From positions 124,001-188,000 of the forward strand of contig NZ_MVDD01000003.1 of the NCBI RefSeq assembly GCF_002843315.1: a stretch of 64,000 nucleotides of DNA, written 5' to 3'. Each line of letters begins with the position of its first letter. Position 1 is the stretch's first letter. The notes under the pieces are model-generated. The model saw only the letters and a program-made list of their open reading frames with translations. It was not told the DNA's origin and did not search any database. The DNA comes from Labilibaculum filiforme. GTDB lineage: Bacteria; Bacteroidota; Bacteroidia; Bacteroidales; Marinifilaceae. Position numbers and translations under genes: made by a program. This document shows, piece after piece, positions 2,896-61,183 of this stretch.

Positions 2896-2901
2896 CCCCC
2901 C
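2896..2901 (+). promoter_or_regulatory. C6 tract just before the HTCS start codon
   Basis: CCCCCC ends two bases before the ATG at 2904. It resembles the C-tracts upstream of other transcription units here, but its position at the start codon is exceptional. Either it lies in the leader of the HTCS mRNA, or the true start is the ATG at 2916. Confidence 0.3.
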
Positions 2902-2903
2902 GT

Positions 2904-5900
2904 ATGAGCTATTGCATGAACTTGTTTCGAATTTCTTTTACAGTTATGGCCTGTTTATTGAGCCTAAACAATTTTGCCCAAAATATACGTTTTGATCATT
3001 TAGATATTAATGATGGTTTGTCGCAGAACAGTGCATTTTGCATGGATATTGATGCTAATGGTTATGTTTGGGTAGGAACTCTTAATGGATTAAACAGATA
3101 TGATGGATACTCGTTTGAAGTATTTAAGCCAAGTATAAATAGGTCGGGAAGTTTAAAAGGCAGCTTATGTTCCGATCTGGTATGTGATTCGGAAGGTAAC
3201 ACCTGGATTGCTACAGTAGATGGAGGACTTAATAAATACGATTACTTACATCAGAGATTCATTCAGTATCACGATTCCTTATTTCCATCTTTTTCAACTA
3301 AGAGTATACAAAAACTTAGTATCGACAAACGTGGCTGGTTATGGCTAAAATCACCCAACACCATAATCGGTTTTAATCCAAAAGATAGCACAATTATTTC
3401 GCCTCTTCCCGAACAGAAAATTTCTAATATTTCTTTACTATTTAACGGAAACATTGCTGCTTGCGGCGATTTTGGATTGTATGAAATCGAGTCTAATACA
3501 AATACCTTGTTTACAATTAATTATCGAATTAAAGAACCCGTTGTAGCGCTAGCTTATTCTAACAGTAAAACAGTAGTATTACATCAGGACAAAATTGATT
3601 TTTACGACAATAAACTTTTGCAAAGAACGCAAAGCTTTTTATTAAAAAACATTGAAAACAGTCTCCCAATTGGTGAAAATTCACAAATATTGGTAGACTC
3701 CAATAAGATTTGGATTGGAAGATTTCAAGCTTTGGTAAAATATGAACTAATAGAAAACCAATTAATATGTAAAGATTACCAATACGATGCTAATAATTCA
3801 AACTCTTTTCGTGGTTATCAGATTACTAAAATTCTTAAAGATAAAGCTGAAAACATATGGATTGGAACCGCTAAACATGGCATAAATATTATTAGCAAAC
3901 GTGTAAATGAATTCAAGCATTTTAATTGGATAAAAAGTCCTTCATCTGAGAAAGAAATTGATTTAGTTAGAGCCATTTGTGCAAGCTCTAAAAATGAATA
4001 CTGGCTTGGGTTTGACAGAACAGGACTTGGAATAATCTACCCAAATGGCAAACAAAAGTTGATTACCACTTACTTAGATTCAAATAATAAAGAACTGGCA
4101 TTGAAAAGTGTTAGAACCATTTTTGAAGACCAGCAAAAAAATATTTGGGTAGCAATGTTAGATGGTTTCTGTATCTACAATAGAAAATCACAACAGTTAG
4201 AACACATCAATCGTTATTTGAAAAGCAAATGGAACAATCGGAGCTATTCTATTAAGCAATTTTCTGACACAGAAGTAGTTATTACTACCGGAACAAAAAT
4301 TGGCATTATTGATTTGGAGAGTAAAACAGAAGAAATATTTCCAAATAATGAAGAGAATAGAACCATTCAGGGAAGTATTAGAGATATTGAAGTGGATGGA
4401 AATAGTATCTGGATAGGATTAGATCAACATGGAATTGCACAAATTAATACACAAACAAAAGAGATTACACACTTCAACACCAATTCAATTGGTTTAAGTG
4501 ACAATAAAGTATATAACCTAAGTAAAATTGGGAATGACCTTTGGATTGCTACCAATAATGGTCTTAATCGATTTAATACAAGCACCAAAAAGGTAGATGA
4601 AATTTTTTACGAAGAACACGGCTTAGCAAACAATATTGTTTACAGCTTAAATCCTGATGAAGACAACAATTTATGGATGAGTACTAATAGAGGAATTAGT
4701 AAATTAAATTTAACAACTAAACAATTCTGTACCTATTTAAAAAGTGATGCTTTTATGGATGATGCATCGTTTCAAGCAACAGATGGAAGTATATTTTATG
4801 GAGGATACAATGGTGTAATACACTTTAAACCAAAACAACTTCAAATCAGTAAAACAAAACCAAATCCATTTATTGAAAACTTTAGCTTACACAATAAAAT
4901 TATTCTGCCAAATTCAATAATAGACGATAGAGTTTTATTGAAACAACATATTAACCAAAGTGATCGCATACAACTGAACTATTCTGAGAATACTTTTTCA
5001 TTTAATTTTAAAACCATTCCTTTTGAAATACCCAATTCTAATAAATACAGGTACAAACTAGAGAATTGGCAAAACGAATGGCAGGATGGAGATAATAAAT
5101 CAGCTATTTACACCAATGTATTACCTGGCGAATATCTGTTTAAACTATCCGTATCTAATTCGGAAGAGAATTGGTCTCCTGCTAAAGAAATACAAATTAT
5201 AATTACTCCTCCTTATTGGAAAAAATTATGGTTTAAGTTAATGCTAACGGGTATTTTCCTAGTATTTCTATTTACCACCTACAGATTGCGTGTTTACCAA
5301 ATTCAAGAACGAAATAAGCTCTTAAAACAAAAGGTGGATGAACAAACGAAAGATATTGTGAAACAAAATAAAGAGATACAAAAAATATCGGAGCAGTTGC
5401 ATGAAGCTGATGAAGCAAAACTTCGTTTTTTCACAAATATATCCCATGAATTTAGAACCCCTTTAACCTTAATTTTAGGGTACTTAGAAGAACTAGATGA
5501 AGGCAAATCATTCCATATTAAAAAGACCATAAAAAACAACGCACTTCGTTTGCTTCGACTGGTTAATCAGCTAATTGAATTCCGTAAACTCGACCAAGAT
5601 CAACTAAAACTGGAAGTTTCTTCTTTTGAATTAAATCGTTTTGTAGGAGACATCGTTGAATCATTTAAAAAGTTAGCGAGTAATAAAAATATTGCTCTTG
5701 CCTATGAACCTTATAAAAATAGAATTCCTGTTTGGTTGGATGTCGACAAAACAGAAAAAATTCTATTTAATTTGATCTCAAATGCCGTAAAGTATACTTC
5801 TGCAAACAATTCTATAAGTGTATCAACGCATGATAATTTAGAACTGTTTGAAATCAAAGTGATAGATTCTGGCATAGGTATATCCGAAGAGGAAATTACT

Positions 5901-6920
5901 CAAATTTTTAATCGGTTTTTTAGAAGTAAAAACAGCAATGAATCAGGACATGGAATTGGCTTAGCATTGGCCAAAGGCCTTACTGAAATGCAATATGGCA
6001 ACTTATCTGCTAGCTCCGTAAAAGGGAAAGGATCTACCTTCACAGTTCAATTTAGGAAAGGAAAAGATCATTTTAAAAACAATGAATTTGCTTCAGAAAA
6101 ACAAGTAAAAGCTTATCTACCTGAGAAACAGGAAGAAATTATTAGTGTAGGAAAACAACTTAATAATGTATTTGAAAAAAGGATTTTATTGGTTGAAGAT
6201 GACGAGGAACTACGCAATTTCCTTCAAAAAATTCTTTCCGATCAGTTTTCGATAACTAGTGCGGAAAATGGTTTGGATGCAATTCAAAAATTAGAAAATA
6301 TAATTCCTGATTTAATTGTTTCGGATATCTCTATGCCTAAAATGGATGGAATAACATTTTGTAAAAAGGTAAAAGAGAATCCGCTTACAGCTAAAATTCC
6401 TTTCATACTATTAACGGCCAAAACAGATTCAATTACCCATATCGAAGGATTTAAACTAGGCATAGATGACTATATTGAAAAACCTTTCAACAAACAGGTT
6501 CTAATAGCGCGTATCGAAGCTCTTATAAACAATCGAGAAAAACTATTTCAGGCTCCGATTGAAAGAAGAACAATGGCCAAATTGGATAAATCTAAATTTA
6601 GTAAAAACGATGTTCAGTTTTGGAAAAAAACAAACACGATAATCAATCGTAATTATAGCAATCCTAATTTCACAACTGAGGTTTTAAGTGAAAATAGTAA
6701 CATGAGTCGATCAACTTTCTACCGAAAATTTAAAGGACTATGCGGAGAAAACGCCGCCGATTACATTCGCAAAATTAGATTGCATAAAGCGGCTGAATTA
6801 GTACAAAAAAAAGAACTAAATATTCAACAAATTAGCTTAGAAGTTGGTTTCCAAAGCACAGCTCATTTCCGAACAAAGTTCAAAGAATATTTTGGTGTTA
6901 ATCCATCGGAATATTCCTAA
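2904..6920 (+). CDS. Hybrid two-component system sensor/regulator (HTCS)
   Basis: 1338 aa, typical for the family. Order of parts: N-terminal signal/anchor segment; a periplasmic sensor of beta-propeller repeats (about residues 25-700; motifs such as GYVWVGTLNGLNRYDG and NLWMSTNRGISKL); a Y_Y_Y-like domain (about 690-770); a transmembrane helix near 775-795; a histidine kinase with H848 in SHEFRTPL; an ATPase domain (DSGIGI, GHGIGLALAK); a receiver domain with acidic pocket D1099/D1100 and phospho-acceptor D1141 (SDISMP); and an AraC-type DNA-binding domain to the end. HTCS proteins bind an oligosaccharide in the periplasm and switch on a polysaccharide utilization locus, so this is the likely main activator of the enzymes here. 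The start could also be the ATG at 2916. Confidence 0.96.
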   Translation: MSYCMNLFRISFTVMACLLSLNNFAQNIRFDHLDINDGLSQNSAFCMDIDANGYVWVGTLNGLNRYDGYSFEVFKPSINRSGSLKGSLCSDLVCDSEGNTWIATVDGGLNKYDYLHQRFIQYHDSLFPSFSTKSIQKLSIDKRGWLWLKSPNTIIGFNPKDSTIISPLPEQKISNISLLFNGNIAACGDFGLYEIESNTNTLFTINYRIKEPVVALAYSNSKTVVLHQDKIDFYDNKLLQRTQSFLLKNIENSLPIGENSQILVDSNKIWIGRFQALVKYELIENQLICKDYQYDANNSNSFRGYQITKILKDKAENIWIGTAKHGINIISKRVNEFKHFNWIKSPSSEKEIDLVRAICASSKNEYWLGFDRTGLGIIYPNGKQKLITTYLDSNNKELALKSVRTIFEDQQKNIWVAMLDGFCIYNRKSQQLEHINRYLKSKWNNRSYSIKQFSDTEVVITTGTKIGIIDLESKTEEIFPNNEENRTIQGSIRDIEVDGNSIWIGLDQHGIAQINTQTKEITHFNTNSIGLSDNKVYNLSKIGNDLWIATNNGLNRFNTSTKKVDEIFYEEHGLANNIVYSLNPDEDNNLWMSTNRGISKLNLTTKQFCTYLKSDAFMDDASFQATDGSIFYGGYNGVIHFKPKQLQISKTKPNPFIENFSLHNKIILPNSIIDDRVLLKQHINQSDRIQLNYSENTFSFNFKTIPFEIPNSNKYRYKLENWQNEWQDGDNKSAIYTNVLPGEYLFKLSVSNSEENWSPAKEIQIIITPPYWKKLWFKLMLTGIFLVFLFTTYRLRVYQIQERNKLLKQKVDEQTKDIVKQNKEIQKISEQLHEADEAKLRFFTNISHEFRTPLTLILGYLEELDEGKSFHIKKTIKNNALRLLRLVNQLIEFRKLDQDQLKLEVSSFELNRFVGDIVESFKKLASNKNIALAYEPYKNRIPVWLDVDKTEKILFNLISNAVKYTSANNSISVSTHDNLELFEIKVIDSGIGISEEEITQIFNRFFRSKNSNESGHGIGLALAKGLTEMQYGNLSASSVKGKGSTFTVQFRKGKDHFKNNEFASEKQVKAYLPEKQEEIISVGKQLNNVFEKRILLVEDDEELRNFLQKILSDQFSITSAENGLDAIQKLENIIPDLIVSDISMPKMDGITFCKKVKENPLTAKIPFILLTAKTDSITHIEGFKLGIDDYIEKPFNKQVLIARIEALINNREKLFQAPIERRTMAKLDKSKFSKNDVQFWKKTNTIINRNYSNPNFTTEVLSENSNMSRSTFYRKFKGLCGENAADYIRKIRLHKAAELVQKKELNIQQISLEVGFQSTAHFRTKFKEYFGVNPSEYS

Positions 6921-6950
6921 CGCACATTTAAATAACTAATAAAAGAATAT

Positions 6951-6955
6951 CCCCC
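6951..6955 (+). promoter_or_regulatory. C5 tract upstream of GH43 gene
   Basis: TATCCCCCTCTTTTCGCC lies 74 bases before the ATG at 7030, almost the same spacing as the C6 tract before the GH2 gene that starts at 15051. It is part of the recurring C-tract pattern described in the findings. Confidence 0.35.
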
Positions 6956-7029
6956 TCTTTTCGCCCTAAATTATTACCATTTCGAAGGTTCCTATTTATA
7001 ACTTTAAACCTAAATTAAACCTTTCGAAA

Positions 7030-8379
7030 ATGCTTATTACAAAAAGAAAACTATTTACTTTTGCAATCTTCCTATTCGCAGGATTTTTGAATGCAAACGC
7101 ACAAAATCCATTGGTGACACATCTATTTACAGCCGATCCAACAGCTCGTGTTTTTAACGGCAAACTATATGTATTTCCATCCAGTGACACTTATCCTCCT
7201 GCCGGACGAGAAGCAGAATTTCCTCGATTTTGTATGCCAGGATACCATGCTTTCTCATTGGAAAATGGTTCTACATGGAAAGATCATGGCTGGGTTTTAA
7301 AAGAAAATGATGTGCCTTGGGGCGAAAAAGACACCTACGCAATGTGGGCTCCGGATTGTATTGAGAAAGATGGAAAATATTACTACTACTATCCTGCAAA
7401 ACCAAAAAACGACAAAGCCTTTAGAAGAATTGGTGTTGGTGTTTCCGACCATCCAACAGGGCCATTTAAGTGGGAAAAAAGCTTCATAAAAGATGTAACT
7501 GGTATTGATCCCGGCTTACTTTTAGACGATGATAACAAAGCTTATTTATTTTTTGGTGGTGGTCATGAATTATACGTTGCTCCTCTTAAAAATAATATGA
7601 AAGAAGTTGCAGCCGAACCAATCCTAGTTGAGGGATTGCCTGCAGGATACAAAGAGGGTTCGTTCCCGTTTAAAAAAGATAGTGTTTACTATCTAACTTT
7701 TGCTCATGTTTTTCCTGATGAGGGATACACAATTGGCTATGCAACAAGCAGTAAGCCGATGGGGCCTTATCAATACAGAGGAAAAATAATGGATAATATT
7801 CACAATGGAACCAACCATCATTCTGTTGTAAAATATAATGATCAATGGATCCTTTTCTATCACTCCTGGGACATTAGCGGTTTCAATAAACTACGCTCGA
7901 TGTGTGCCGACTACATGGAATTTAAAAAGGATGGAACTATAACGAAAGTAAAACCAAGCCTTCGCGGAATAGGAACTCCTCAAGTAAACGACACCATACA
8001 AATTGACCGATACAATGAAATATCTGGGGCGAACACCACATTTGTTGGTGGCGACGAACCAAACGGTTGGATGGTTTGCGATGCAAAAATGATGAGCTAT
8101 GTGAGGTTTGATCGGGTAAAATTAGATGGAGCCACTACAATTAAAGCACGCGTGGCTAGCGGACAAAGAAACGGTAGTTTCGAAATAAGATTGAACAATC
8201 CGAAAGGTAAATTAATTGCTGAATTCCCTATTAATTATACAGGTGGATGGAGCTCTTGGGAGACAATTGAAACCACTATTAAGGAACCAGTTACCGGGAC
8301 TCACAATCTTGTGGTTGTATTTAAATCGGATTGGGGAAATACAAAATCAGTTAATTTGAATTGGTTGTTGCTTCAATAA
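7030..8379 (+). CDS. Glycoside hydrolase family 43 with C-terminal CBM6-like domain
   Basis: 449 aa with a signal peptide ending near residue 25 (NANAQ). The five-bladed beta-propeller of GH43 spans about residues 27-310. The three expected acidic residues are visible: Asp in TADPTARV, Asp in GIDPGLL and Glu in YKEGSFP. Residues about 320-449 form a beta-sandwich with SYVRFDRVKLDG and a WSSWET block, as in CBM6 modules. GH43 enzymes are mostly alpha-L-arabinofuranosidases or beta-xylosidases, with some exo-galactanases; the subfamily is not settled here. It follows the HTCS gene by 109 bases and has its own C-tract upstream. Likely periplasmic or surface-located. Confidence 0.88.
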   Translation: MLITKRKLFTFAIFLFAGFLNANAQNPLVTHLFTADPTARVFNGKLYVFPSSDTYPPAGREAEFPRFCMPGYHAFSLENGSTWKDHGWVLKENDVPWGEKDTYAMWAPDCIEKDGKYYYYYPAKPKNDKAFRRIGVGVSDHPTGPFKWEKSFIKDVTGIDPGLLLDDDNKAYLFFGGGHELYVAPLKNNMKEVAAEPILVEGLPAGYKEGSFPFKKDSVYYLTFAHVFPDEGYTIGYATSSKPMGPYQYRGKIMDNIHNGTNHHSVVKYNDQWILFYHSWDISGFNKLRSMCADYMEFKKDGTITKVKPSLRGIGTPQVNDTIQIDRYNEISGANTTFVGGDEPNGWMVCDAKMMSYVRFDRVKLDGATTIKARVASGQRNGSFEIRLNNPKGKLIAEFPINYTGGWSSWETIETTIKEPVTGTHNLVVVFKSDWGNTKSVNLNWLLLQ

Positions 8380-8413
8380 GTTTCTTAATTCTTATTTTCA
8401 AATCCTATTTTTA

Positions 8414-8447
8414 AGAATGTCACTATACTTGCGTATAGTGACATTCT
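8414..8447 (+). terminator. Perfect 15-bp hairpin after GH43
   Basis: AGAATGTCACTATAC pairs perfectly with GTATAGTGACATTCT around the loop TTGC. No T-run follows, so it may be a terminator of unusual type, an mRNA-stabilising 3' hairpin, or an operator of the esterase gene at 8547. Confidence 0.55.
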
Positions 8448-9464: not shown

Positions 9465-9480
9465 AAGATTATTCCTAAAA

Positions 9481-11022: not shown

Positions 11023-12400
11023 CTTTTTCACTTTAAGCTTTGTACTTTAATCTTTAGCCTTCGTACTTTGATCTTTCACCTTTATACTTCAAGAATCTAC
11101 CTTATTGATATTCCGACGCAAACAAAAATTGCTTTCCAAAGAATATTTTTACTTGCGTCGGTAATTACTGTCACTTCTATATCCCAGGGTGACATTCGCT
11201 ACGCTCATTTACCCCGGGCTATTGGAATTTGAGCCCTTCAGGCTCGAGAAAGATGCAATTGCTAAGAAATAAAAGTAGATTTCGCGATTCTTCAATTTTG
11301 AACTTTTTCACTTTAACCTTTGTACTTTAATCTTTAGCCTTCGTACTTTGATCTTCCACCTTTATACTTCAAGAATCTACCTTATTGATATTCCAACGCA
11401 AACGAAAATTGCTTTCCAAAGAATATTTTCACCTGCGTCGGTAATTACTGTCACTTCTATATCCCAGGGTGACATTCGCTTCGCTCATTTACCCCGGACT
11501 ATTGGAATTTGAGCCCTTCAGGCTCGAGAAAGATGCGATTGCTAAGAAATAAAAGTAGATTTCGCGATTCTTCAATTTTGAACTTTTTCACTTTAACCTT
11601 TGTACTTTAATCTTTAGCCTTCGTACTTTGATCTTCCACCTTTATACTTCAAGAATCTACCTTATTGATATTCCAACGCAAACGAAAATTGCTTTCCAAA
11701 GAATATTTTCACCTGCGTCGGTAATTACCGTCACTTCTATATCCCAGGGTGACATTCGCTACGCTCATTTACCCCGGGCTATTGGAATTTGAGCCCTTCA
11801 GGCTCGAGAAAACACTTCCCTTTTCACTTCACTACTATTACTGCTTAATTTTCTCAAAATTAGCTTTTTCACTTTAAGCTTTGTACTTTGATCTTTCACC
11901 TTTATACTTCAAGAATCTACCTTATTGATATTCCGACGCAAACAAAAATTGCTTTCCAAAGAATATTTTCACCTGCGTCGGTAATTACTGTCACTTCTAT
12001 ATCCCAGGCTTGCATTCGCTACGCTCATTTACCCCGGGCTATTGGAATTTGAGCCCTTCAGGCTCGAGAAAACACTTCCCTTTTCACTTCACTACTATTA
12101 CTGCTTAATTTTCTCAAAATTCGCTTTTTCACTTTAAGCTTTGTACTTTGATCTTTAGCCTTCGTACTTTGATCTTTCACCTTTATACTTCAAGAATCTA
12201 CCTTATTGTTATTCCGACGCAAACAAAAATTACTTTCCAAAGAATATTTTCACCTGCGTCGGTAATTACTGTCACTTCTATATCCCAGGCTTGCATTCGC
12301 TACGCTCATTTACCCCGGGCTATTGGAATTTGAGCCCTTCAGGCTCGAGAAAGATGCGATTGCTAAGAAATAAAAGTAGATTTCCTGAATTTTGATTTTG
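11023..12400. repeat. Five tandem 260-281-bp repeats with REP-like palindromes
   Basis: Units begin CTTTTTCACTTTAA at 11023, 11303, 11583, 11864 and 12124. Each has three parts: a pyrimidine-rich block of short imperfect repeats (TTTGTACTTTAATCTTTAGC); an inverted repeat of the form CCGACGCAA ... TTGCGTCGG about 35 bases apart; and a GC-rich block with CCCAGGGTGACATTCGCTA, ACCCCGGGC and the hairpin GAGCCCTTCAGGCTC. Units 1, 2 and 5 are followed by one connector (AAGATGC...TAAGAAATAAAAG), units 3 and 4 by another (AACACTTCCCTTTTCACTTC). The GC-rich block resembles REP-type elements moved by Y1/RAYT transposases in Bacteroidota, but no transposase is in the window. Confidence 0.92.
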
Positions 12401-12480: not shown

Positions 12481-12527
12481 AGACGATTTTTAGATTGGTT
12501 TATTTAAGATAAAAAATAAAATCGTCT
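12481..12527 (-). terminator. Possible terminator overlapping the GH2 stop codon
   Basis: AGACGATTTT (12481-12490) pairs with AAAATCGTCT (12518-12527) across a 27-base AT-rich loop. The arm overlaps the TAG stop of the leftward GH2 gene. No clean T-run, so this is tentative. Confidence 0.35.
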
Positions 12528-15051
12528 AATTTACAAGCACTTCAAGTTCAGGACTAGATAGCTCTTTTGCCTTGGCTTTCACTTTAATCGTTCCTTTTTC
12601 GAAAGTAGATTGCAAAATTAGTAAGCATTTGCCATTGGCAGTTGTAATTGTATTGGTTTGATAATCCTGAACACTAGATGAAGAACCATTGTCAACACCC
12701 AACAATCGAGCCGGACCAGTAATCTCAAATTCCACTTTTAATTCTTGATTTCTCACCGGAATACCATTTTTATCGGTTAACTGAAGTGTATAATGAATCA
12801 CATCATAGCTATTTGCCAACACTTCCTCTTGATCGGCAAGCAATTCAAGTTTTTGAACCTCCTTGGCAGTTTGGATACTATATGATTCTGTTCCATCTAC
12901 AGCTTTAGCAGTCAATTTCCCCTTTTCATAAGGAATCATGAATTTAATAATATGATCCTCATTACTCGCTAAAGATTGTATGCCCATCGATTTATCATTT
13001 AAAAACAATTCGATTTTCTCTTGATTTGTGTACACTTCCACTGCGATACTATCGTCAATTGAATAATTCCAATGCTCGTTTACCTCTTGCCATCCCCATT
13101 TCTGATGACTTGCCCAATCTTTCTCTTTCTCCACTAATAAGTGAAGCTTTGCATCCCATTTGTAAGGAGATTTCGAGACCAATTGAGTTGCGATATACAC
13201 TTGTGGCTCATCATTCCAAAGCGTTTTAAACATCTGATAAGATGGCTTTTTAAAGCCTGCAAAATCGAGCAACCCACTACTACTTCCTCTTTTGGGCCAA
13301 GCTCGTGATTCTCCCATATAGTTGATCCCTGTCCACAGAAAAATACCCGAAATAAACTTTTTTTCTACCACAGGTTTCCATTCGTGCCATCGTGTCCAAT
13401 TCTCGGTCCCCAAAAATACTTTATCAGGATAATTCTTTTTGCAATAATCATAAACAGCTTGTCGATACGAAAGACCAACAACATCCAAAGCATCGGCATA
13501 TCCGGAAAAATTACTGACACTCGGAATTACCAAATTAGCAGTCACCGGCCTCGATAAATCGACCTCTTTTACCCATTTCGATAAGTTCCGTGCTGTTTCT
13601 GCAACCTGATATTTTCCTTGTGGATGATTCTGAAAATTCGACCTGATTTTCTCAACAGAGAAAGGAGGCTCATCCCAATAATAATTTACATCACCCACCT
13701 TGTTTTTGCCCCAGTATCCTGTTGCATCACCATAGTTAGGGAAAGTCCATTCTATTTCGTTTCCAATGCTCCACATAATAATTGAAGGATGATTTTGATC
13801 CCGTTTCACCATACTTTTTATATCCCGTTCTGCCCACTCCTCAAAACTATTCGTATAACCTTTGGTCACATCCTCTTCCGCTTCCTGATTGTAGTTATTC
13901 CTCTTATCCTTAGGGTTTTGCCACTCATCAAAGGCTTCCTCTTGTACTAAAAATCCCATTTCGTCGCAGATATCTAGAAACTCCGATGAAGCTGGATTAT
14001 GAGCCGTACGAATGGCATTACAACCAGCCTCTTTTAAAGTTTTCAATCTTCGCTCCCATACTCCTCTTGGTACGGCAGCTCCAACCATTCCACCATCGTG
14101 ATGCAAACAAACGCCTTTTAAAAGCATATTTGTACCATTTAAGTAAAATCCTGAATCTTTATCAAACTTAAAACTTCGAATACCAAATGTATTAGAAACC
14201 TCATCAATAGTATTTTTGTCAACAATTACCTCTGAAACCAATCTGTACAAATTCGGATTTTGGGTATCCCAAAGATTTGGTGATAAAACTTCAATTTTTT
14301 GATTTACCTTTTGACTTCCATTTCCCGAAATACTTAAAGCAGTTTCCTGACCACCGATCTCTTTATTCTGGAAATAAACTGTTGTTTTTAATACAATTAA
14401 CTTCTCTTCTTCCAGATCATTTTTAACATCAGTAACAATATGAACTTTTGCCTTATCAGTAGAAACATTGGGCGTTGTAATTTGAGTTCCCCATTGTGGA
14501 ATGTGAACTTTACCGGAAGTCACCAATTTTACATTTCGATAGATTCCAGAACCAGGATACCAACGAGAATCCAAATAAGCCGACCGATCGACTTTAACAG
14601 CAATCACATTCTTTACATCTCCATAATTTAAATAGGCAGTTAAATCGTAAGCAAAGGGTGCATAACCAAATGGTCTTTTACCCAAATAATGTCCGTTGAT
14701 CCAAACTTCTGAATTGGTATAAACCCCATCGAATTCTATTCTTGTTATTTTATTAGTTGCCGCAACTGGCATTGCAAATGATTTGCGATACCATCCAATC
14801 CCTGCAGGTAAGAATGCTGTTGCTCCACCCGTATTTTCCTGAGTAAACGAATGTTCTACACTCCAATCGTGTGGTAATTGCGCATTTCGCCAATCCTTAC
14901 TGTCATATTCAAGTTTGTAGGCATCCACCTCATCCCCTAAATGAAATTTCCATCCAAAGTTGAAATCGTCAACAGTTCTTGCTGATTGATTCACAGATTG
15001 ACAACCTGCAAATAAGCTTACTACTAAGACTAAAAATATTAATTGCTTCAT
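12526..15051 (-). CDS. GH2 beta-galactosidase-like lipoprotein
   Basis: 841 aa with a lipoprotein signal (LVVSLFAGCQS). GH2 order is visible: sugar-binding jelly roll (about 28-190), Ig-like domain (190-300), TIM barrel (300-600), then C-terminal beta-sandwiches (DUF4982-like and Ig-like, 620-841). The acid/base is E432 in WSIGNEIEW and the nucleophile E550 in FLGTENW, so the enzyme should be active. The family includes beta-galactosidases, beta-mannosidases and beta-glucuronidases. Among GH117, GH16 and sulfatases, an exo-beta-galactosidase role on agar/porphyran oligosaccharides is most likely. It has its own upstream C6 tract, 75 bases from the ATG, and appears to be a separate transcription unit from the GH29 gene. 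Confidence 0.9.
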   Translation of the reverse strand: MKQLIFLVLVVSLFAGCQSVNQSARTVDDFNFGWKFHLGDEVDAYKLEYDSKDWRNAQLPHDWSVEHSFTQENTGGATAFLPAGIGWYRKSFAMPVAATNKITRIEFDGVYTNSEVWINGHYLGKRPFGYAPFAYDLTAYLNYGDVKNVIAVKVDRSAYLDSRWYPGSGIYRNVKLVTSGKVHIPQWGTQITTPNVSTDKAKVHIVTDVKNDLEEEKLIVLKTTVYFQNKEIGGQETALSISGNGSQKVNQKIEVLSPNLWDTQNPNLYRLVSEVIVDKNTIDEVSNTFGIRSFKFDKDSGFYLNGTNMLLKGVCLHHDGGMVGAAVPRGVWERRLKTLKEAGCNAIRTAHNPASSEFLDICDEMGFLVQEEAFDEWQNPKDKRNNYNQEAEEDVTKGYTNSFEEWAERDIKSMVKRDQNHPSIIMWSIGNEIEWTFPNYGDATGYWGKNKVGDVNYYWDEPPFSVEKIRSNFQNHPQGKYQVAETARNLSKWVKEVDLSRPVTANLVIPSVSNFSGYADALDVVGLSYRQAVYDYCKKNYPDKVFLGTENWTRWHEWKPVVEKKFISGIFLWTGINYMGESRAWPKRGSSSGLLDFAGFKKPSYQMFKTLWNDEPQVYIATQLVSKSPYKWDAKLHLLVEKEKDWASHQKWGWQEVNEHWNYSIDDSIAVEVYTNQEKIELFLNDKSMGIQSLASNEDHIIKFMIPYEKGKLTAKAVDGTESYSIQTAKEVQKLELLADQEEVLANSYDVIHYTLQLTDKNGIPVRNQELKVEFEITGPARLLGVDNGSSSSVQDYQTNTITTANGKCLLILQSTFEKGTIKVKAKAKELSSPELEVLVN

Positions 15052-15126
15052 TAGTTATATTGAATTAATTCATCAGTAAAACTATAATATGTTCAGAAAA
15101 TTAGCTTGAAAAAATAGTGACTATTA

Positions 15127-15132
15127 GGGGGG
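15127..15132 (-). promoter_or_regulatory. C6 tract (minus strand) upstream of GH2
   Basis: On the coding strand it reads TATTCCCCCCTAATAG, ending 75 bases before the ATG at 15051. Member of the recurring C-tract set. Confidence 0.45.
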
Positions 15133-18343: not shown

Positions 18344-19963
18344 TTATTTATCCCAATATTCATCAACTATTTTCTTTATATGCGGAAATTTTTCATCCGT
18401 ATCGCCAATCTCTTCACGTTGCAGCTTCAACTTCTCCTTCATCATTTTTTTCACCTCTGCATAGTTTGGATCATCGTATACATTGTTCATTTCCTTAGGA
18501 TCTTTCGTCAAATCGTATAGTTCCCAAGCTGGAGGAGTATGCCTTGTAAAATCATTTCCCCAAGATGCTTTATTCCATTCTGCATCTGGATTATCGGTAT
18601 CTACCCAATATTTGCCATAAAAGAAAATCAACTTATAATCTTTAGTTCGAATACCAAAATGTGCAGGATTTGCATGACGATGAGCCATGTGCATCCAATA
18701 TCTGTAATAAGTAGCATCGCGCCAGTTTTCAGGTTCTTCCCCCGTTTCTAAAATAGATTTGAAACTTTTTCCTTGCATGTATTCTGGAGCTTTTCCTCCT
18801 GCCAGTTCAATTAAAGTAGGAGCAAAATCGGTATTATTAATAAGAGCATTCGTTCTCTGATCGGCCTTAATTTTCTCCGGACAATGAACAATAAATGGCA
18901 TTCTCATCGATTCTTCGTACATCCACCTCTTGTCAATGTAATCATGTTCACCCAACATAAATCCCTGATCACCAGTATAAACAATAATTGTATTCTCCCA
19001 CAATCCTTCTTTTTTTAAATAAGCAAACAAACGAGCCAAATTATCGTCAACACCTTTCACACAACGTAAATATCTTTTAATGTATTCCTGATAGGTTAAC
19101 TTGGTATATTCAGGATCTGGGATACTTTGATCGATTCCCATATGCATTCCCATATTTCTAAGGGTATCACGGTGAGAAACCGAAGATCCTATTATATGAA
19201 TTAATTCATCGTTATAACCTTTTGTTCCTACAGAACCATTGTTTTGGTTATCGTACAAACTAGCAGGTTCGGGAATAAAAGTATCCTCCAAATAGTCTTT
19301 ATACCTTGGAGCAAACTCAAACATATCATGAGGTGCTTTATAATGATGCATCAAAAAGAATGGCTTGGTCTTATCTCTGTTCTTTAAATAATCTAATGTA
19401 ATATCTGTAATCACATCGGTACTATAACCTTCTGTTTTTATTGTTTCTGTTTCCTTTGTTGCAGGGAACTCATATTTCATCCCTTTCTCGATAAATACCG
19501 GGTTAAAGTATTCTCCCTGTTCACCATGACCAACAAGTACTTTGTAGTAATCAAACGAGGATGGTTCATCATGTAAATGCCATTTCCCAATCATTGCAGT
19601 TTCATATCCCAACTTTTTTAGTTCTTGGGGTAAATATTGCTTATCTCCAATTTCACCTTCCAAATCGAGTACTCCATTTACATTGCTGTACTGACCTGAA
19701 ATAATACACGCTCTACTTGGAGTACAAATAGCATTCGTTACAAAGCAATTGTCAAAAATCATCCCTTCTTTAGCAAATTCATCAATTGTTGGTGTTGGGT
19801 TAAGAGATGCCAAACGACTACCATAAATACCAAATCCTTGTGTCGTATGATCATCGGACATGATATAAATAATATTAGGTTTTTGTTGTACTTCCGGTTG
19901 CTTACAAGAAGTAGAAATTAGACCTAAAACGGCCAAAGAAATTCCAATTAAACTTGTTTTCAT
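18344..19963 (-). CDS. S1-family sulfatase lipoprotein (CTPSRA)
   Basis: 539 aa with a lipoprotein signal (LGLISTSCKQ). C80 in ICTPSRACIISG is the residue expected to become formylglycine. Metal ligands are seen in MSDDHT near the N-terminus and in TGDQGFMLGEHD near residue 345; IGKWHLHDEPSSFDYY carries the conserved Lys/His. The C-terminal subdomain includes LYDLTKDPKEMNNV. Overall it resembles N-acetylglucosamine-6-sulfatase-like S1 groups such as S1_11, which in porphyran loci includes L-galactose-6-sulfate sulfatases; subfamily assignment is by eye only. A C6 tract with an adjacent palindrome lies upstream. It heads the leftward cluster with SGNH and GH29 genes. Confidence 0.92.
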   Translation of the reverse strand: MKTSLIGISLAVLGLISTSCKQPEVQQKPNIIYIMSDDHTTQGFGIYGSRLASLNPTPTIDEFAKEGMIFDNCFVTNAICTPSRACIISGQYSNVNGVLDLEGEIGDKQYLPQELKKLGYETAMIGKWHLHDEPSSFDYYKVLVGHGEQGEYFNPVFIEKGMKYEFPATKETETIKTEGYSTDVITDITLDYLKNRDKTKPFFLMHHYKAPHDMFEFAPRYKDYLEDTFIPEPASLYDNQNNGSVGTKGYNDELIHIIGSSVSHRDTLRNMGMHMGIDQSIPDPEYTKLTYQEYIKRYLRCVKGVDDNLARLFAYLKKEGLWENTIIVYTGDQGFMLGEHDYIDKRWMYEESMRMPFIVHCPEKIKADQRTNALINNTDFAPTLIELAGGKAPEYMQGKSFKSILETGEEPENWRDATYYRYWMHMAHRHANPAHFGIRTKDYKLIFFYGKYWVDTDNPDAEWNKASWGNDFTRHTPPAWELYDLTKDPKEMNNVYDDPNYAEVKKMMKEKLKLQREEIGDTDEKFPHIKKIVDEYWDK

Positions 19964-20118
19964 TGCTTATTTTACTTTTCTGTTATCTGAAATAGCAATA
20001 GAATGTATTTCATTCTATCCGATCTGATTGATAAATTTGATTTAAATTTAACAGATTTACCAATCACTAAAATTAAGCTATATAGAATAAAAATATGCGG
20101 TAAAAACGCATAAGAAAA

Positions 20119-20138
20119 GGGGGGTGAAATCGATTTCA
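20119..20138 (-). promoter_or_regulatory. C6 tract joined to 14-bp palindrome
   Basis: On the minus strand TGAAATCGATTTCA is followed at once by CCCCCC. The palindrome is perfect and suits a dimeric regulator. It lies 155 bases upstream of the sulfatase ATG at 19963. Confidence 0.4.
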
Positions 20139-20350
20139 AGTCACAATTAAACCATATATCAAGCTAAACTTAATTGGAAAAGTAATTATTTCCACAAAAA
20201 ATAAGGCTTACTAAAACCTCAGTAATAAAGCAAAAAGCAACTATTATACTAGAGTCTGCCAATACGATGAAAACGAAAAAATTGCATAACTACCCCCAAG
20301 ATCAAGCTAAAATACAAAAATGTATAGTTTCCTGTAAAGTTAAATTCAGA

Positions 20351-20356
20351 CCCCCC
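20351..20356 (+). promoter_or_regulatory. C6 tract upstream of sulfatase trio
   Basis: AGACCCCCCTTATTTTG lies 120 bases before the ATG at 20477. Member of the recurring C-tract set. Confidence 0.4.
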
Positions 20357-20476
20357 TTATTTTGAACCAAAACATCCCCAAACTTCCTTCTGGTTAATTG
20401 TATTTTTGTATACAATTGATTCATTCAACTTGTTAAATAAATTTCATTTACCCAAAATTGAAAAAATATTATTGAT

Positions 20477-35544: not shown

Positions 35545-36092
35545 AGTGATATATTAATTACAGTTTATTATCGGTTTATAATAATACTTGATTTATTGCA
35601 GTGGAAAGGGGAAAATATAAACCTAAAAGAAGGGATATTTAAGAAATATATGACAAATAAGGATAGTCTGAGCTCTTAATTGAAAAGAATCCGAAATTAT
35701 AAAGAATAAAAAGAAAGAATCCAGATGGTCGAACTTAGAATAAAATTAAATTCCTTTTTTTAACATTTTGCAAATTATAAAGTCAATTTTTATTTACGAT
35801 AATAAAAACGATAAAAAATTATCGCGGAAATATTTTGTAAAGTTTTTTTATTAGTAATCGCCTCATTTACTGTTGTTTTTAAATTTTAACTTTTTTAGAT
35901 CTTCCAAAAAATGTATGTCCCCTTTCGATTTCAGAAAGTAATTTTAATCCATACTCACAATTTCCCCCCTCATCAAAGTAGAAATTGTTCATTTGCAAAC
36001 GATGTCAATTCCATAAATTTATCTGGTTATCGAATAGAAAATAAGCACAAAGACTTTATCTATTCTTTCAGGACTTCTAATACAAAAAACAA
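35545..36092. promoter_or_regulatory. Divergent promoter region between GH2 and sulfatase genes
   Basis: 548 AT-rich bases without a convincing gene; a 61-codon frame (35911-36096) overlaps the sulfatase start and lacks any recognisable feature. C-tracts are present for both directions: CCCCCC at 35964-35969 (plus) and a weaker GGGG at 35608-35611 (CCCC on the minus strand, 63 bases before the GH2 ATG). Confidence 0.45.
35964..35969 (+). promoter_or_regulatory. C6 tract upstream of sulfatase
   Basis: ACAATTTCCCCCCTCATC, 123 bases before the ATG at 36093. Member of the recurring C-tract set. Confidence 0.4.
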
Positions 36093-37748
36093 ATGAACAT
36101 TTTAAAAAATAAAAAAAGACTACTAAAAATTGTCTTTACAGTAAGCCTGTTGGCAATTTCATTTCATTCTTTTTCGAAAACTAAAAAAGATAAAAACAAG
36201 CCAAATATTATTGTGGTATTTGCCGATGATATTAGTGCTCGAGAAATTCCCATATACGGATCGAGTGTTTGGAGCCCGCCCGAAGGAGGAAATACATCCG
36301 ATACCAACTACAGAGCAAAAACTCCAGTGATGGATAAAATGGCAAAGGATGGATGCTGGTTTTCTACAGCATGGGGCGCAACCGTATGTTCTCCTAGTCG
36401 TGCTATGATGATGACCGGCCGTTATGCTCATCTTCATAAATGGTGGCATAACGGAGATCTTGGAAGAGGCATCAACGAGAAAGGGAAAAAAGGAATTTGG
36501 CCGCTTTACGAAAGTTGCCCTCACACCATTGGTTTTGTTGCCAAAAAAGCTGGATATGCAACATATTGGGCTGGGAAAACACAAATGAAAGGTAGCGACG
36601 TTCGTCTATTTGGTTTTGATGAAGGTTGTTTAACTCCTGGAGAACAAGGTGCTGAAAAGAATCCTTATACCGATTTTGTGGTTAGTAATAAGGTCGTAAA
36701 TGGCAAAAAACTTTTAATTAATGAAGATACTGGAAAAGAAGTTAAATACTATGCTCAAACCGGTTGGTACTGGAAACCTCATATTCGTTTAATGAATCAT
36801 CCGGCAGCAAGCAATAGCTTGGAATGGTGGCCAAATACTGCCGAAACTCAAAACGATTTTGGCTTGAATACCTATGGTCCGGACGTAGAATTAGACTTTA
36901 TTTTTGATTTTATGGATAGAAAGAATAAGGAGGACAAGCCTTTCTTTATCTACCACACAAGTCACTTAGGACATGATGGATGGGATTTTTTTAATCCGGA
37001 AACCAAAAACAAATGGCCTGGCACACCAAAACTGGAATGGAAAAACGGTAAATATATTAGAACAACTCCGAATGTAACTGGAGATAATGGTGTTTACGAT
37101 ACCCATGGAACAGTTACTGAATCGGGAATTCATAATCAAATCAACTACCTTGACTACCAATTATGGCAATACATAAATAAGCTTAAAGAAATGCAAATTG
37201 AGGACAATACAATTTTAGTTTTTTGCGCTGATAATGGGACTAGTAAATATGGAAAAGGAAGTCAGGAATCACAAAAAGGCGTTCATGTCCCCTTAATTAT
37301 TTATGCTCCAGGTTTTGAGTTAACCAAACAAGGGAAACAGGATATCCTAGTAAATCTTTCGGATATATTACCAACCATTGCATCTATTACCGGAGTAAAA
37401 ATACCCGATGATTATGAAATTAATGGAGTTAGTTTATGGCCTTACCTTACTACTAACCAAACAGAACATCGGGAATGGATTTATGCCTACAAAAAAAACA
37501 AACAATTAATTCGAAATAATAAAGTTTTACATGATGGCGATGGGAAATGGTACGATGTTCGTGAATATCCTGACGATTTGATCAGCTTTCCGATTATTCC
37601 TAAAAATACATCTGCAAACAAATACAAAGTAGAACAAGAAAAATTGCAGAAAATTCTTCCTCAATTTGACTTACATGAGGCAGAACATGATGCTCCCAAG
37701 AATGCTAAGAACAAAATAATCAGTGATCTTGAATTGAATAAAAAATAA
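36093..37748 (+). CDS. S1-family sulfatase (CSPSRA), large insert type
   Basis: 551 aa with an N-terminal hydrophobic signal (IVFTVSLLAISFHSFS). C99 in TVCSPSRAMMMTGRY is the formylglycine site. VFADDISAREIPIYG and CADNGTSKYG give metal ligands; YWAGKTQMKG replaces the common GKWHLG, so the Lys is kept but the next His is not. Insertions around HKWWHNGDLGRG and GWYWKPHIRLMNHPA suggest a distinct substrate pocket. Subfamily not assigned. First gene of an operon with the BNR protein and a GH29 (gaps 64 and 19 bases), under a C6 tract. Confidence 0.9.
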   Translation: MNILKNKKRLLKIVFTVSLLAISFHSFSKTKKDKNKPNIIVVFADDISAREIPIYGSSVWSPPEGGNTSDTNYRAKTPVMDKMAKDGCWFSTAWGATVCSPSRAMMMTGRYAHLHKWWHNGDLGRGINEKGKKGIWPLYESCPHTIGFVAKKAGYATYWAGKTQMKGSDVRLFGFDEGCLTPGEQGAEKNPYTDFVVSNKVVNGKKLLINEDTGKEVKYYAQTGWYWKPHIRLMNHPAASNSLEWWPNTAETQNDFGLNTYGPDVELDFIFDFMDRKNKEDKPFFIYHTSHLGHDGWDFFNPETKNKWPGTPKLEWKNGKYIRTTPNVTGDNGVYDTHGTVTESGIHNQINYLDYQLWQYINKLKEMQIEDNTILVFCADNGTSKYGKGSQESQKGVHVPLIIYAPGFELTKQGKQDILVNLSDILPTIASITGVKIPDDYEINGVSLWPYLTTNQTEHREWIYAYKKNKQLIRNNKVLHDGDGKWYDVREYPDDLISFPIIPKNTSANKYKVEQEKLQKILPQFDLHEAEHDAPKNAKNKIISDLELNKK

Positions 37749-42301: not shown

Positions 42302-42307
42302 CCCCCC
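42302..42307 (+). promoter_or_regulatory. C6 tract upstream of GH43/GH3 unit
   Basis: GATACACCCCCCATTTTC lies 88 bases before the ATG at 42396 and directly after the preceding terminator, so it is in a short true promoter region. Member of the recurring C-tract set. Confidence 0.45.
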
Positions 42308-42395
42308 ATTTTCAAATAATTCACGCCACTTGATCTAAATCACTACACCTATCTTTACAAAAGGATTCTATTTTAATAGTCCAACATTATAAGAA

Positions 42396-43718
42396 ATGAA
42401 CAGATACTTTACTTTTTTATCAGCAATCGCCTTGTTTTTAACTTTTACAAGTTGGGCACAAAATCCAATTGTTCCTGCTGGAATGTATATTGCCGATCCG
42501 GAAGCTCATGTCTGGCAAGATGGTAAAATCTACGTCTATGGCTCTCGAGACGAAAGTGATGACTTTTGGTGTTCATACAAACATCATGTTCTATTTTCGG
42601 ATAATTTACAAGATTGGAATGTGATCGAAAATTCATTTGCTTCGAAAGGAGAATTTGACCAGGTGGATTACCACGATCAACTACTATTTGCTCCTGATTG
42701 TGCCTATAAAAATGGGACTTACTATTTGTATTACTGTTCTCCGAAAACATTATGCGAAGGTGTCGCAAGAAGCAAATCTCCTTTAGGTCCATTCTCTGCG
42801 GGAAAAGAAATTATAGGTGCAAATCAAATTGATCCTGCTGTTTTGGTTGACGACGATGGACAAGCTTACTACTATTGGGGACAAGGAAAACCTAAAGTTG
42901 CTAAACTAAAAGCAAACATGACAGAAATTGACTCCTCAACGATAACTCTTCCTTTGGATGAAGCTGGAAACAAAGCCTTTCATGAAGGTTCATCTATCCG
43001 AAAAATTGGAGACTGGTACTATTTTGTTTGTGCCGATGATAGCAGAGAAAATCGTCCAACTTGTTTGGGATATGCTACTAGTAAAAATCCAATGGGACCA
43101 TTTGAATACAAGGGAGTTATCATCGATAATATTGGTTGTGATCCTGCGGTATGGAACAATCATGGTTCTATTGAAAAATTTAAAGATCAGTGGTATGTTT
43201 TTTACCATCGATCAACCCACAATTCTCAGAAATTCCGCAAAGCTTGTATCGAACCTATCAAAATCAATAAGGATGGAACAATTGATGAAGTAGAAATGAC
43301 AACGCAAGGTGCTGGAAAAGCATTAGCTGCAGGCGATTTAATGCAAGCAGAAAGAGCTTGTTTGTTATCTGGCAAAGTATTTATCGACGAAAGTAAATCC
43401 AACGACATTCCCAATGAAGAGTTAACAAATATTGCTGAAGGTGATTACGCTGTCTACAAATATTTGAACTTCGAAAAGCAACTAAAGAACTTTCGAATTA
43501 AAACGAATGTATCCAATAATGGCTTGGTGGAATTAAGATTGGATGAGCCTGACGGTACACTAATTGGAAGCTGTAACTTATCGAAAACAATGAATAAAAC
43601 AGCCTTTCAAATTTCGAACTGTGAAATAGAGTCAGTCAAAGGAAAGCATGCCTTATACTTAGTATTTAAAGGTGAAAACAATTCATTTTTTACCATCGAC
43701 TGGTTTCAATTCTATTAA
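42396..43718 (+). CDS. Glycoside hydrolase family 43 with C-terminal CBM6-like domain
   Basis: 440 aa with a signal peptide ending near residue 21 (FTSWAQ). GH43 acids: Asp in YIADPEAHVW, Asp in QIDPAVLVDDDG and Glu in FHEGSSIRK. C-terminal residues about 320-440 match a CBM6-type beta-sandwich (YKYLNFEKQLKNFRIK, VELRLDEPDGTLIG). It is related in build to the GH43 at 7030-8379 but clearly diverged. Typical activities are alpha-L-arabinofuranosidase, beta-xylosidase or exo-galactanase. It is followed after 64 bases by a GH3, with which it probably forms a two-gene unit. Confidence 0.9.
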   Translation: MNRYFTFLSAIALFLTFTSWAQNPIVPAGMYIADPEAHVWQDGKIYVYGSRDESDDFWCSYKHHVLFSDNLQDWNVIENSFASKGEFDQVDYHDQLLFAPDCAYKNGTYYLYYCSPKTLCEGVARSKSPLGPFSAGKEIIGANQIDPAVLVDDDGQAYYYWGQGKPKVAKLKANMTEIDSSTITLPLDEAGNKAFHEGSSIRKIGDWYYFVCADDSRENRPTCLGYATSKNPMGPFEYKGVIIDNIGCDPAVWNNHGSIEKFKDQWYVFYHRSTHNSQKFRKACIEPIKINKDGTIDEVEMTTQGAGKALAAGDLMQAERACLLSGKVFIDESKSNDIPNEELTNIAEGDYAVYKYLNFEKQLKNFRIKTNVSNNGLVELRLDEPDGTLIGSCNLSKTMNKTAFQISNCEIESVKGKHALYLVFKGENNSFFTIDWFQFY

Positions 43719-57986: not shown

Positions 57987-58005
57987 TAAAACAAATTCCT
58001 AAGGC

Positions 58006-58037
58006 AAAAAAACCGAAACAGCACGTTACTGTTTCGG
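58006..58037. terminator. Intrinsic terminator
   Basis: CCGAAACAG (58013-58021) pairs with CTGTTTCGG (58029-58037). The A7 run at 58006-58012 gives a T-run on the minus strand for the sulfatase gene; it may also stop the regulator gene ending at 57986. Confidence 0.8.
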
Positions 58038-58062
58038 GATTTTCACTTATCACTAATCTAAC

Positions 58063-59859: not shown

Positions 59860-59895
59860 TATACTGATATTTAATTAGCTGTTTGTCTGTCTGTA

Positions 59896-61056
59896 CTAAA
59901 AAATGGTTTGTCCCATTTTAAATTCTGATTTAGAAACGTATTTTGCCTGAACGCTATGTGGCTTTTTATTTTTTAAAACGTCCATTTTAACTTCTAAATA
60001 ATTACTGCCATATCCTGCATAAACAGGTAACTTTTCCTGATGAAAAACATTCCCTTCCTCATCTAAAAACAAGAACTCAATCCTTCTGTTTTTATTCGCT
60101 TTATAAATAAAATCAATCCGTAAAGCGGTTCCTTGATTATTTGCTGTAAGTTCTATATTTTCCTTAAAAATTGCTTCTTTATAAGTTGATTTCTCCTTTT
60201 GATCCATCTTTACCAATTCATAAGACCTTACCCAATCGTAAAAGGCAGTGTTAATGTCATTGTTCAGTAAATCTTCGTTTGAAGGTGCTGGTTGCCAATC
60301 GTAAGTTTCGGTCACCATGTTTATTTTCATGGGTCTATCAAATGGTTTTGATGAAATATCGGTACGAATCATTACCGTATCAAACAACTGATTATCAGCA
60401 TAATAAAGCACCTCATTTGCATTTTTCCACCAAGCTCCATAGGTATGAAACTCTTCCGAAACCTCAGAGTTTAAAGTTGCTCCTGTTCCCTTCGACATAA
60501 ATGTCTCTTTTTTTTCTCCTGGCTTTACGTATCTAAAATGAGTATTAGAATTCATGCCATTTCTAAACTTCTTATGAACCGTTCCTCCACCTATACATTC
60601 CTGAATATCCAGTTCCTGACTGTAAGAATCTCGTGTATCTTCAGTATCGGCATAAGGTACTTTATCATTAGACATCCAAAAAGTAGTCGACATGGCAATT
60701 TTAGATGCTTTCGCATGACATTCGTAATAGCCGTAATATGCCTCAGATGATTTTGAAGATACCGCTCCGCCATAAATCGTAAAATCTTTAACTGGCTTGT
60801 CCAACACTCCACTTTTTATTTCCAAATTTCCATTTTTTACGGATATTGCTTCAGGAACAAACATAGCAGGAGCTCTTCCCTGCCATCCGTTAAAGGTATC
60901 GTACCATTTTTTAGAATTTAATTGATTGCCATTAAACTCATCGGAAAAGCTTCCATTCAACACCCAACGGTAACCCTTTGGTGGAATTGGAGGATCTGCA
61001 AAAGTATTTGTTGTTAAAAACGCAAATAGAAATAGAATTAGATATTTTCGATTCAT
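59896..61056 (-). CDS. GH16 endo-beta-galactanase (porphyranase/agarase-like)
   Basis: The start at 61056 (MNRKYLILFLFAFLTTNTFA) gives a clean signal peptide; an in-frame ATG at 61089 would add 11 residues. 386 aa from 61056. The GH16 active site E-x-D-x-x-E is seen as ELDIQE with E148, D150 and E153. GYRWVLNGSFSDEFNGNQLN near the mature N-terminus and MNSNTHFRYVKPGEK resemble algal-galactan GH16 enzymes (beta-agarase or beta-porphyranase groups). A C-terminal beta-sandwich of about 110 residues follows. It is the only clear endo-acting enzyme in the window. Upstream is a C5 tract; downstream in the operon is a sulfatase. Confidence 0.9.
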   Translation of the reverse strand: MNRKYLILFLFAFLTTNTFADPPIPPKGYRWVLNGSFSDEFNGNQLNSKKWYDTFNGWQGRAPAMFVPEAISVKNGNLEIKSGVLDKPVKDFTIYGGAVSSKSSEAYYGYYECHAKASKIAMSTTFWMSNDKVPYADTEDTRDSYSQELDIQECIGGGTVHKKFRNGMNSNTHFRYVKPGEKKETFMSKGTGATLNSEVSEEFHTYGAWWKNANEVLYYADNQLFDTVMIRTDISSKPFDRPMKINMVTETYDWQPAPSNEDLLNNDINTAFYDWVRSYELVKMDQKEKSTYKEAIFKENIELTANNQGTALRIDFIYKANKNRRIEFLFLDEEGNVFHQEKLPVYAGYGSNYLEVKMDVLKNKKPHSVQAKYVSKSEFKMGQTIF

Positions 61057-61137
61057 AATATAAAATTTAAAATAATGTTCAGAAAACAATATTACAATCT
61101 CCTGCCAACAATCAAGAAATAAATCCTATACATAAAA

Positions 61138-61142
61138 GGGGG
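61138..61142 (-). promoter_or_regulatory. C5 tract (minus strand) upstream of GH16
   Basis: Reads AAATGCCCCCTTTTATG on the coding strand, 81 bases before the ATG at 61056. Member of the recurring C-tract set. Confidence 0.4.
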
Positions 61143-61177
61143 CATTTGAATACATTTCCCCATGCAATTACACAAAT

Positions 61178-61183
61178 CCCCCC
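61178..61183 (+). promoter_or_regulatory. C6 tract upstream of LacZ-type GH2
   Basis: CAAATCCCCCCTACAATTG, 104 bases before the ATG at 61288. Downstream, TTG (61209-61211) and TATTTTTAC (61228-61236) stand 16 bases apart, a possible Bacteroidota-type promoter. Member of the recurring C-tract set. Confidence 0.4.

What the first reader, a model, noticed from the sequence alone, without database searches (positions are those of the whole stretch)
2896..61183. C5-C6 tracts on the coding strand upstream of nine transcription units
In this AT-rich DNA, runs of six C occur at 2896, 15127 (minus), 20119 (minus), 20351, 35964, 42302 and 61178, and runs of five at 6951 and 61138 (minus). All lie in gaps before HTCS, GH43, GH2, sulfatase or GH16 genes, and the C-rich strand is always the coding strand of the next gene. 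Spacing to the start codon is mostly 74-123 bases (74, 75, 81, 88, 104, 120, 123), with outliers at 155 and 2. A T- or A-rich stretch usually follows. By eye I found no C6/G6 run inside a gene and only a few C5/G5 runs (27036, 47948, 50122). This looks like a shared operator, perhaps for the HTCS AraC domain, or a promoter-associated element.
Basis: partly seen in the sequence, partly recalled or inferred. Interest (0 to 1): 0.7.

Follow-up and report, generated by a model that had tools for sequence, protein, structure and literature searches.

The report
C-tract operator of a seaweed-sugar regulon
Short runs of five or six C's sit at a fixed distance in front of promoters across a roughly 100-kb seaweed-polysaccharide gene cluster, and they look like the switch site of one sugar-sensing regulator encoded just outside the window.

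Summary
C6 alone is not the signal, because 58 of 91 fetched C6+ runs lie in genes. The signal is a composite: C5-C6, a weak C-rich half-site 20-22 nt on, and a Bacteroidota -7 box (TAnnTTT[A/G]) starting about 42-45 nt after the run. Seven of ten intergenic runs in the window have the exact box at 42-44 nt. Genome-wide, 10 of 18 places with this composite lie within about 100 kb spanning the window. A syntenic cluster in a same-genus genome has the run at 11 of 13 counterparts, while flanks diverged. The operator tracks a second hybrid two-component regulator, HTCS2 (C3:198468-202664, about 10 kb past the window). It does not track the window's own HTCS, which is a remnant in that relative and was not found in four other genomes with HTCS2. 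Best reading: the activator operator of HTCS2 for a red-algal galactan (porphyran-like) regulon, a new member of the known direct-repeat HTCS operators. Binding is untested.

The parts
6951..7006 (+). operator-promoter of the GH43/CBM6 gene 7030-8379: C5 run to end of -7 box
   Evidence: exact box at +43; run kept in G003 at 69295
15077..15132 (-). operator-promoter of the GH2 gene 12526-15051
   Evidence: C6, exact box at +42; this gene has only a 36% hit in G003
20068..20124 (-). operator-promoter of the sulfatase gene 18344-19963
   Evidence: C6, exact box at +43; kept in G003 at 82822
20351..20408 (+). operator-promoter of the sulfatase genes from 20477
   Evidence: C6, exact TATTTTTG at +44; kept in G003 at 82964
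35579..35634 (-). weaker candidate operator-promoter of the GH2 gene 32623-35544
   Evidence: profile score 17.0 with a model trained on other genomes; only CCC in the distal half-site
35964..36021 (+). operator-promoter of the sulfatase gene 36093-37748
   Evidence: C6, exact box at +44; counterpart in G003 at 105363 before the fucosidase gene that follows there
42302..42357 (+). operator-promoter of the GH43/CBM6 gene 42396-43718
   Evidence: C6, exact box at +42; the G003 orthologue has no promoter gap
61087..61142 (-). operator-promoter of the GH16 gene 59896-61089
   Evidence: C5, box with one mismatch at +43; run and TAATATTG kept in G003 at 119009
61178..61234 (+). operator-promoter of the GH2 gene from 61288
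   Evidence: C6, exact box at +43; kept in G003 at 119050
2904..6920 (+). HTCS1, the HTCS inside the window; not the preferred owner of the operator
   Evidence: Reg_prop, Y_Y_Y, HisKA, HATPase_c, Response_reg, HTH_18; remnant in G003
2896..2901 (+).
   Evidence: no box at +42 to +44; no C5+ run on the G001 contig with the HTCS1 start
20293..20297 (+). C5 58 nt upstream of the 20351 operator; doubtful, left out of the site counts
   Evidence: only a one-mismatch box at +43

Best explanation
The C-tracts are the promoter-distal half-site of an activator operator. On the coding strand each functional copy reads: A/T-rich bases, C5-C6, usually T, a weaker C-rich half-site centred 20-22 nt on, then a primary-sigma -7 box TAnnTTT[A/G] starting about 42-45 nt after the run. 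The likely binder is the AraC-type output domain of HTCS2 (C3:198468-202664, about 10 kb past the window end). When its sensor meets an oligosaccharide of a red-algal sulfated galactan (porphyran-like), HTCS2 would be phosphorylated, bind both half-sites on one face of the DNA and recruit RNA polymerase at about 16 promoters over about 100 kb. Shown by computation: the composite, its spacing, clustering, conservation and co-occurrence with HTCS2. Inferred: binding, activation, inducer and transcription starts.
For: Exact box at +42 to +44 for 7 of 10 intergenic runs, P 2.6e-8 allowing 10 offsets. 10 of 18 genome-wide composite places lie in C3:106-198 kb; the reversed pattern gives 8 hits in the whole genome. 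11 of 13 sites have a counterpart in G003 with all five Cs identical, while 23 upstream columns are 36% identical. Second half-site: C at +21 in 33 of 56 sites, 0 of 2000 shuffles. Of 80 HTCS loci, the four with an output domain at least 80% identical to HTCS2 hold 9 composites, the other 76 hold 7. Clusters near HTCS2 in G080, G083 and G434, weakly G081. HTCS1 is a remnant in G003 and not found in G080-G083.
Against: No binding, expression or start-site data. The half-site distance (best 23-24 bp) is longer than the published 21 bp average. The reversed-sequence control of the profile scan gave one high score, 19.7. Several transcription units of the window have no operator in that scan. G081 gives only weak clustering (2 of 28, P 0.03) and the G082 HTCS2 contig (6 kb) has no composite. 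Not every other regulator of the genome was tested.
Confidence: 0.82

Rival explanations
1. The operator belongs to the HTCS inside the window (HTCS1, 2904-6920), alone or shared with HTCS2.
For: HTCS1 lies in the cluster and a C5 operator stands directly after it at 6951.
Against: G003 keeps the operators but only a 201-residue C-terminal piece of HTCS1 was found. No HTCS1 relative at E 1e-55 in G080-G083, which carry operators. G001 has HTCS1 (79%) but no close HTCS2 and 2 hits against 9 control hits, though it is highly fragmented. The recognition helices differ.
Confidence: 0.08
2. Another DNA-binding protein, or an alternative sigma factor, reads the C-run.
For: Co-occurrence with HTCS2 does not prove contact; other regulators of these genomes were not surveyed.
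Against: The downstream box fits the primary sigma factor (PMC7366714 passages), and 42-45 nt is too far for a -35 element (general knowledge). The composite is concentrated around this cluster rather than spread over the genome and recurs near HTCS2 orthologues.
Confidence: 0.08
3. The tracts act in RNA (5' leader) or are compositional noise.
For: Runs lie 74-155 nt before start codons in the composite sites of the window; RNA-level control of polysaccharide loci is reported (PMC11697453, search listing only).
Against: Spacing is tight to the -7 box (41-46 nt in 45 exact sites) and loose to the start codon, so the run lies upstream of the predicted transcript. Shuffles and whole-genome controls speak against noise.
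Confidence: 0.02

Closest known systems
Predicted HTCS operators of Bacteroides thetaiotaomicron (Ravcheev et al. 2013, PMC3878776; passages read)
   Same: Two half-sites as a direct repeat about two helical turns apart, upstream of PUL operons, beside an HTCS gene, inferred by comparative genomics.
   Different: Distal half-site is a near-homopolymeric C5-C6; proximal one weak; best spacing 23-24 bp against a 21 bp average; fixed distance to the -7 box shown here; marine Bacteroidales. Their logos were not available for comparison.
Primary sigma (sigma-ABfr) promoter of Bacteroidota, TAnnTTTG at -7 and TTTG near -33 (PMC7366714; passages read)
   Same: -7 box TAnnTTT[A/G] downstream of the operators.
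   Different: TTTG at the -33 place in 0 of 23 operator promoters with exact TAnnTTTG against 7 of 73 control sites, not a significant difference; the proximal half-site falls there.

Membership tests
HTCS operator (direct-repeat kind) | Two conserved half-sites as direct repeat, about 21 bp apart | tested here: met
   C excess at +20 to +22, 0 of 2000 shuffles; but best self-match at 23-24 bp and the proximal half-site is weak
HTCS operator (direct-repeat kind) | Upstream of operons of one PUL, susC/susD included | tested here: met
   C3:196247 (-) precedes the SusC-type receptor gene (C3:193038-196136), followed by a SusD-family gene
HTCS operator (direct-repeat kind) | Conserved in genomes with the orthologous HTCS, not otherwise | tested here: met
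   weak for G081 and not assessable on the short G082 contig
HTCS operator (direct-repeat kind) | Bound by the HTCS AraC-type domain | not testable with these tools
   needs gel shift or footprint
sigma-ABfr promoter | TAnnTTTG-like -7 box | tested here: met
   45 of 56 sites exact for TAnnTTT[A/G], 11 with one mismatch; box presence was a selection criterion
sigma-ABfr promoter | TTTG at -33 | tested here: inconclusive
   0 of 23 operator promoters, 7 of 73 control sites

The most novel reading that the evidence does not exclude
One AraC-type HTCS reads a nearly homopolymeric C5-C6 (G5-G6) tract as its main half-site, perhaps by DNA shape as much as by base contacts. Through it the regulator commands about 16 promoters over 100 kb, a regulon that has absorbed the neighbourhood of a second, decaying HTCS. 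The C-tract grammar would then let red-algal galactan regulons be read straight from sequence across marine Bacteroidales.
Probability: 0.4. Interest if true: 0.6.

Novelty: new member of a known kind. Interest (0 to 1): 0.5.

Why it matters
The HTCS operators described in the papers read here are predictions from Bacteroides. This gives a sharp, testable operator-promoter grammar for one HTCS lineage in marine Bacteroidales, assigns it to a regulator by presence and absence across genomes, and outlines a large regulon for a red-algal galactan from sequence alone. It also corrects the natural assumption that the HTCS nearest the genes is their regulator. No C-tract HTCS operator appeared in the listings of eight searches or the passages read; the library holds open-licence papers only, and RegPrecise and paper supplements could not be consulted.

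Tried and rejected
C6 alone as the marker: rejected; 58 of 91 fetched C6+ runs lie in genes, 49 of them with the C strand opposite to the gene.

2896 and 20293 as operators: rejected for lack of an exact box at the right distance. 20293 has a one-mismatch box at +43 and was dropped by hand before the counts; one duplicate (the same site in L135 and L214) was also dropped, leaving 56 of 58 sites.

Raw pattern counts per genome: uninformative. Many of the 40 genomes have as many hits as their reversed controls; only local clustering discriminates.

Distant regulon members: the 8 composite places elsewhere in the genome were read. Five lie in genes, one in what looks like a dispersed repeat, two precede genes and have a similar site in G003 (L232, L234) but were not pursued.

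Missing -33 TTTG as a sign of activator dependence: direction as expected, not significant. Structure prediction and fold searches were not used.

Its structured fields were garbled; in re-checking I corrected the number of genomes behind the 56 sites (six, not seven) and the width of the upstream flank (23 columns, not 24), and ran.
Full report
Observation. Ten lie between genes, and all seven C6 runs do. Shuffled intergenic DNA gives 2.6 C5+ and 0.5 C6+ runs against 10 and 7 observed; no shuffle of 1000 reached either. In 7 of 7 C6 cases the C strand is the coding strand of the next gene. Apart from 2896 (before an HTCS), the next genes encode GH43/CBM6, GH2, GH16 and sulfatase proteins.

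C6 is not enough. The genome has 140 overlapping C6 matches (100 were listed). Of 91 distinct C6+ runs in the window and the stretches (the control stretches were picked between listed places), 58 lie in genes, 26 upstream on the coding strand (7 in the window) and 7 elsewhere.

The composite. Seven of the ten intergenic C5+ runs of the window are followed by an exact TAnnTTT[A/G] starting 42-44 nt after the last C. One more (61138) has it with one mismatch at 43; 20293 also has a one-mismatch box at 43; 2896 has none there. Upstream DNA has the exact box at 0.43% of positions. The spacing was first noticed by eye, so I allow 10 offsets: P for 7 of 10 is 2.6e-8. Of 19 upstream C6 runs fetched outside the window, one has the box in that place: L028, C3:198299, 10 kb past the window. 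Searching the whole genome for C5-N(42-45)-TAnnTTTR gives 18 distinct places, 10 of them in C3:106-198 kb (the window is C3:124001-188000); the reversed pattern gives 8 hits genome-wide. Of the 8 places elsewhere, 5 are inside genes.

Conservation. Genome G003 of the same genus carries the cluster in synteny at about C1:40-148 kb; most matched proteins are 70-94% identical. Ten of its 23 composite places lie there. Of 13 sites in the 144-kb region of the window's genome with a C5+ run and a box (at most one mismatch), 11 have a run at the corresponding promoter of G003; for the other two, G003 lacks a close orthologue of the gene (15127) or the promoter gap (42302). In the 11 pairs, which were chosen for having a run in both, the five Cs are always identical, the 23 columns upstream 36%, the spacer 45-58% and the box region 65%.

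Second half-site. Aligning 56 sites from six genomes (13, 13, 12, 8, 8 and 2 sites) on the end of the run shows an excess of C at +20 to +22 (33 of 56 at +21), which was not used to choose the sites. Shuffles reach this in 0 of 2000 trials for all sites, 1 of 2000 for the window's genome alone, and 0 of 2000 without G003 and G080. The two halves match each other best at 23-24 bp. Predicted HTCS motifs of B. thetaiotaomicron are direct repeats averaging 21 bp between sites (PMC3878776, passages). Profiles trained on the other genomes find 17 places scoring 13 or more in the 144-kb region, 17 of 17 intergenic and upstream on the coding strand; the best in-gene score is 11.7. The reversed sequence gave one score of 19.7, then 12.4. 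In G003, 14 places score 15 or more, all intergenic, against two reversed scores of 17.3 and 15.0. Nine of the 17 are in the window, including a weaker one at 35631 (-).

Which regulator. The cluster has two HTCSs: HTCS1 in the window (2904-6920) and HTCS2 at C3:198468-202664, 10 kb beyond it. In G003 only a C-terminal piece of HTCS1 was found (201 residues, 79% identical, with a stop in the match), while HTCS2 is intact (74% overall, 92% over its output half). HTCS2 orthologues (68-85% over the output half) occur in Labilibaculum sp. MAG11 (G080), Carboxylicivirga sp. (G083), Bacteroidales SZUA-582 (G082), Saccharicrinis aurantiacus (G081) and in G434, the only other match at E 1e-88 among 393 genomes drawn from the order. 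HTCS1 relatives at E 1e-55 were absent from G080-G083. Of 80 HTCS loci with up to 10 kb on each side, the four whose output domain is at least 80% identical to that of HTCS2 hold 9 composites (4, 2, 0, 3; the 0 is a 6-kb contig) and no reversed control hit; the other 76 hold 7, with 6 reversed control hits. Composite places cluster near HTCS2 in G080 (7 of 12), G083 (9 of 21) and G434 (3 of 16), weakly in G081 (2 of 28, P 0.03). A Paludibacter MAG (G448) whose domain is 54% identical has 2 of 7 on the HTCS contig. G001 has HTCS1 but no close HTCS2 (best 49%), and 2 hits against 9 control hits, though it is in about 1180 contigs. Across the HTCS2 orthologues aligned, the output domain is nearly invariant in its second half and keeps CHIP followed by DK; HTCS1 differs in both. 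That motif marks HTCSs whose DNA binding is held off until phosphorylation (PMC11253607, passages).

Mechanism. The C-run lies about 50 nt upstream of the -7 box and the proximal half-site falls near the -33 position, the usual place for an AraC-type activator that touches RNA polymerase (general knowledge, no call). The -7 box is that of the primary sigma factor (PMC7366714, passages). I infer that glycan-activated HTCS2 binds both half-sites and recruits polymerase. The substrate is inferred from a protein with beta-porphyranase domains (C3:107750-109891), which has its own weak operator copy (C3:109974, score 13.1), and from the sulfatase, GH2, GH16 and alpha-L-fucosidase-family proteins around it.

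Limits. There are no binding, expression or start-site data. Several transcription units of the window show no operator in the scan. Some stretches behind searches were fetched because they held the pattern; in the loci fetched for HTCS2 itself (L132-L135), 9 of 14 upstream C5+ runs and 0 of 12 in-gene runs have the exact box. G082 and G001 are fragmented. The published HTCS logos were not available. Eight paper searches listed no C-tract operator for an HTCS.

Verdict. A real and conserved operator-promoter element, best read as the HTCS2 operator of a red-algal galactan regulon; a new member of a known kind.

Noticed in passing
window 11023-12384: Intergenic tandem array of about 4.9 copies of a 280-bp unit that itself contains 21-bp repeats, between an outer-membrane-protein gene and a GH2 gene.
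   Followed up: no
L124, G003:C1:68657-69259: HTCS1 of the same-genus genome G003 is reduced to a C-terminal piece while the promoters around it keep the C-tract operators.
   Followed up: partly
L231:3954; L238:4311; L239:3687: An apparently dispersed intergenic element containing CCCCCTGTGTGTCA and CATGGACGTTTCATATG, in G000 and twice in G003, with a similar stretch in G004.
   Followed up: no
L232:3945 and L234:3907, with counterparts L241:4132 and L240:4126: Two C5 plus box promoters far from the cluster, each before a gene and with a similar site in G003; the downstream genes look unrelated to polysaccharide use.
   Followed up: partly
window 2904-6920: HTCS1 has AKIP where HTCS2 has CHIP, and lacks the following DK, so it departs from the conserved inhibitory interface of HTCSs (PMC11253607 passages).
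   Followed up: no
fetched stretches of the whole genome: C6/G6 runs inside genes are strand-biased: 49 of 58 have the G-run on the coding strand.
   Followed up: no
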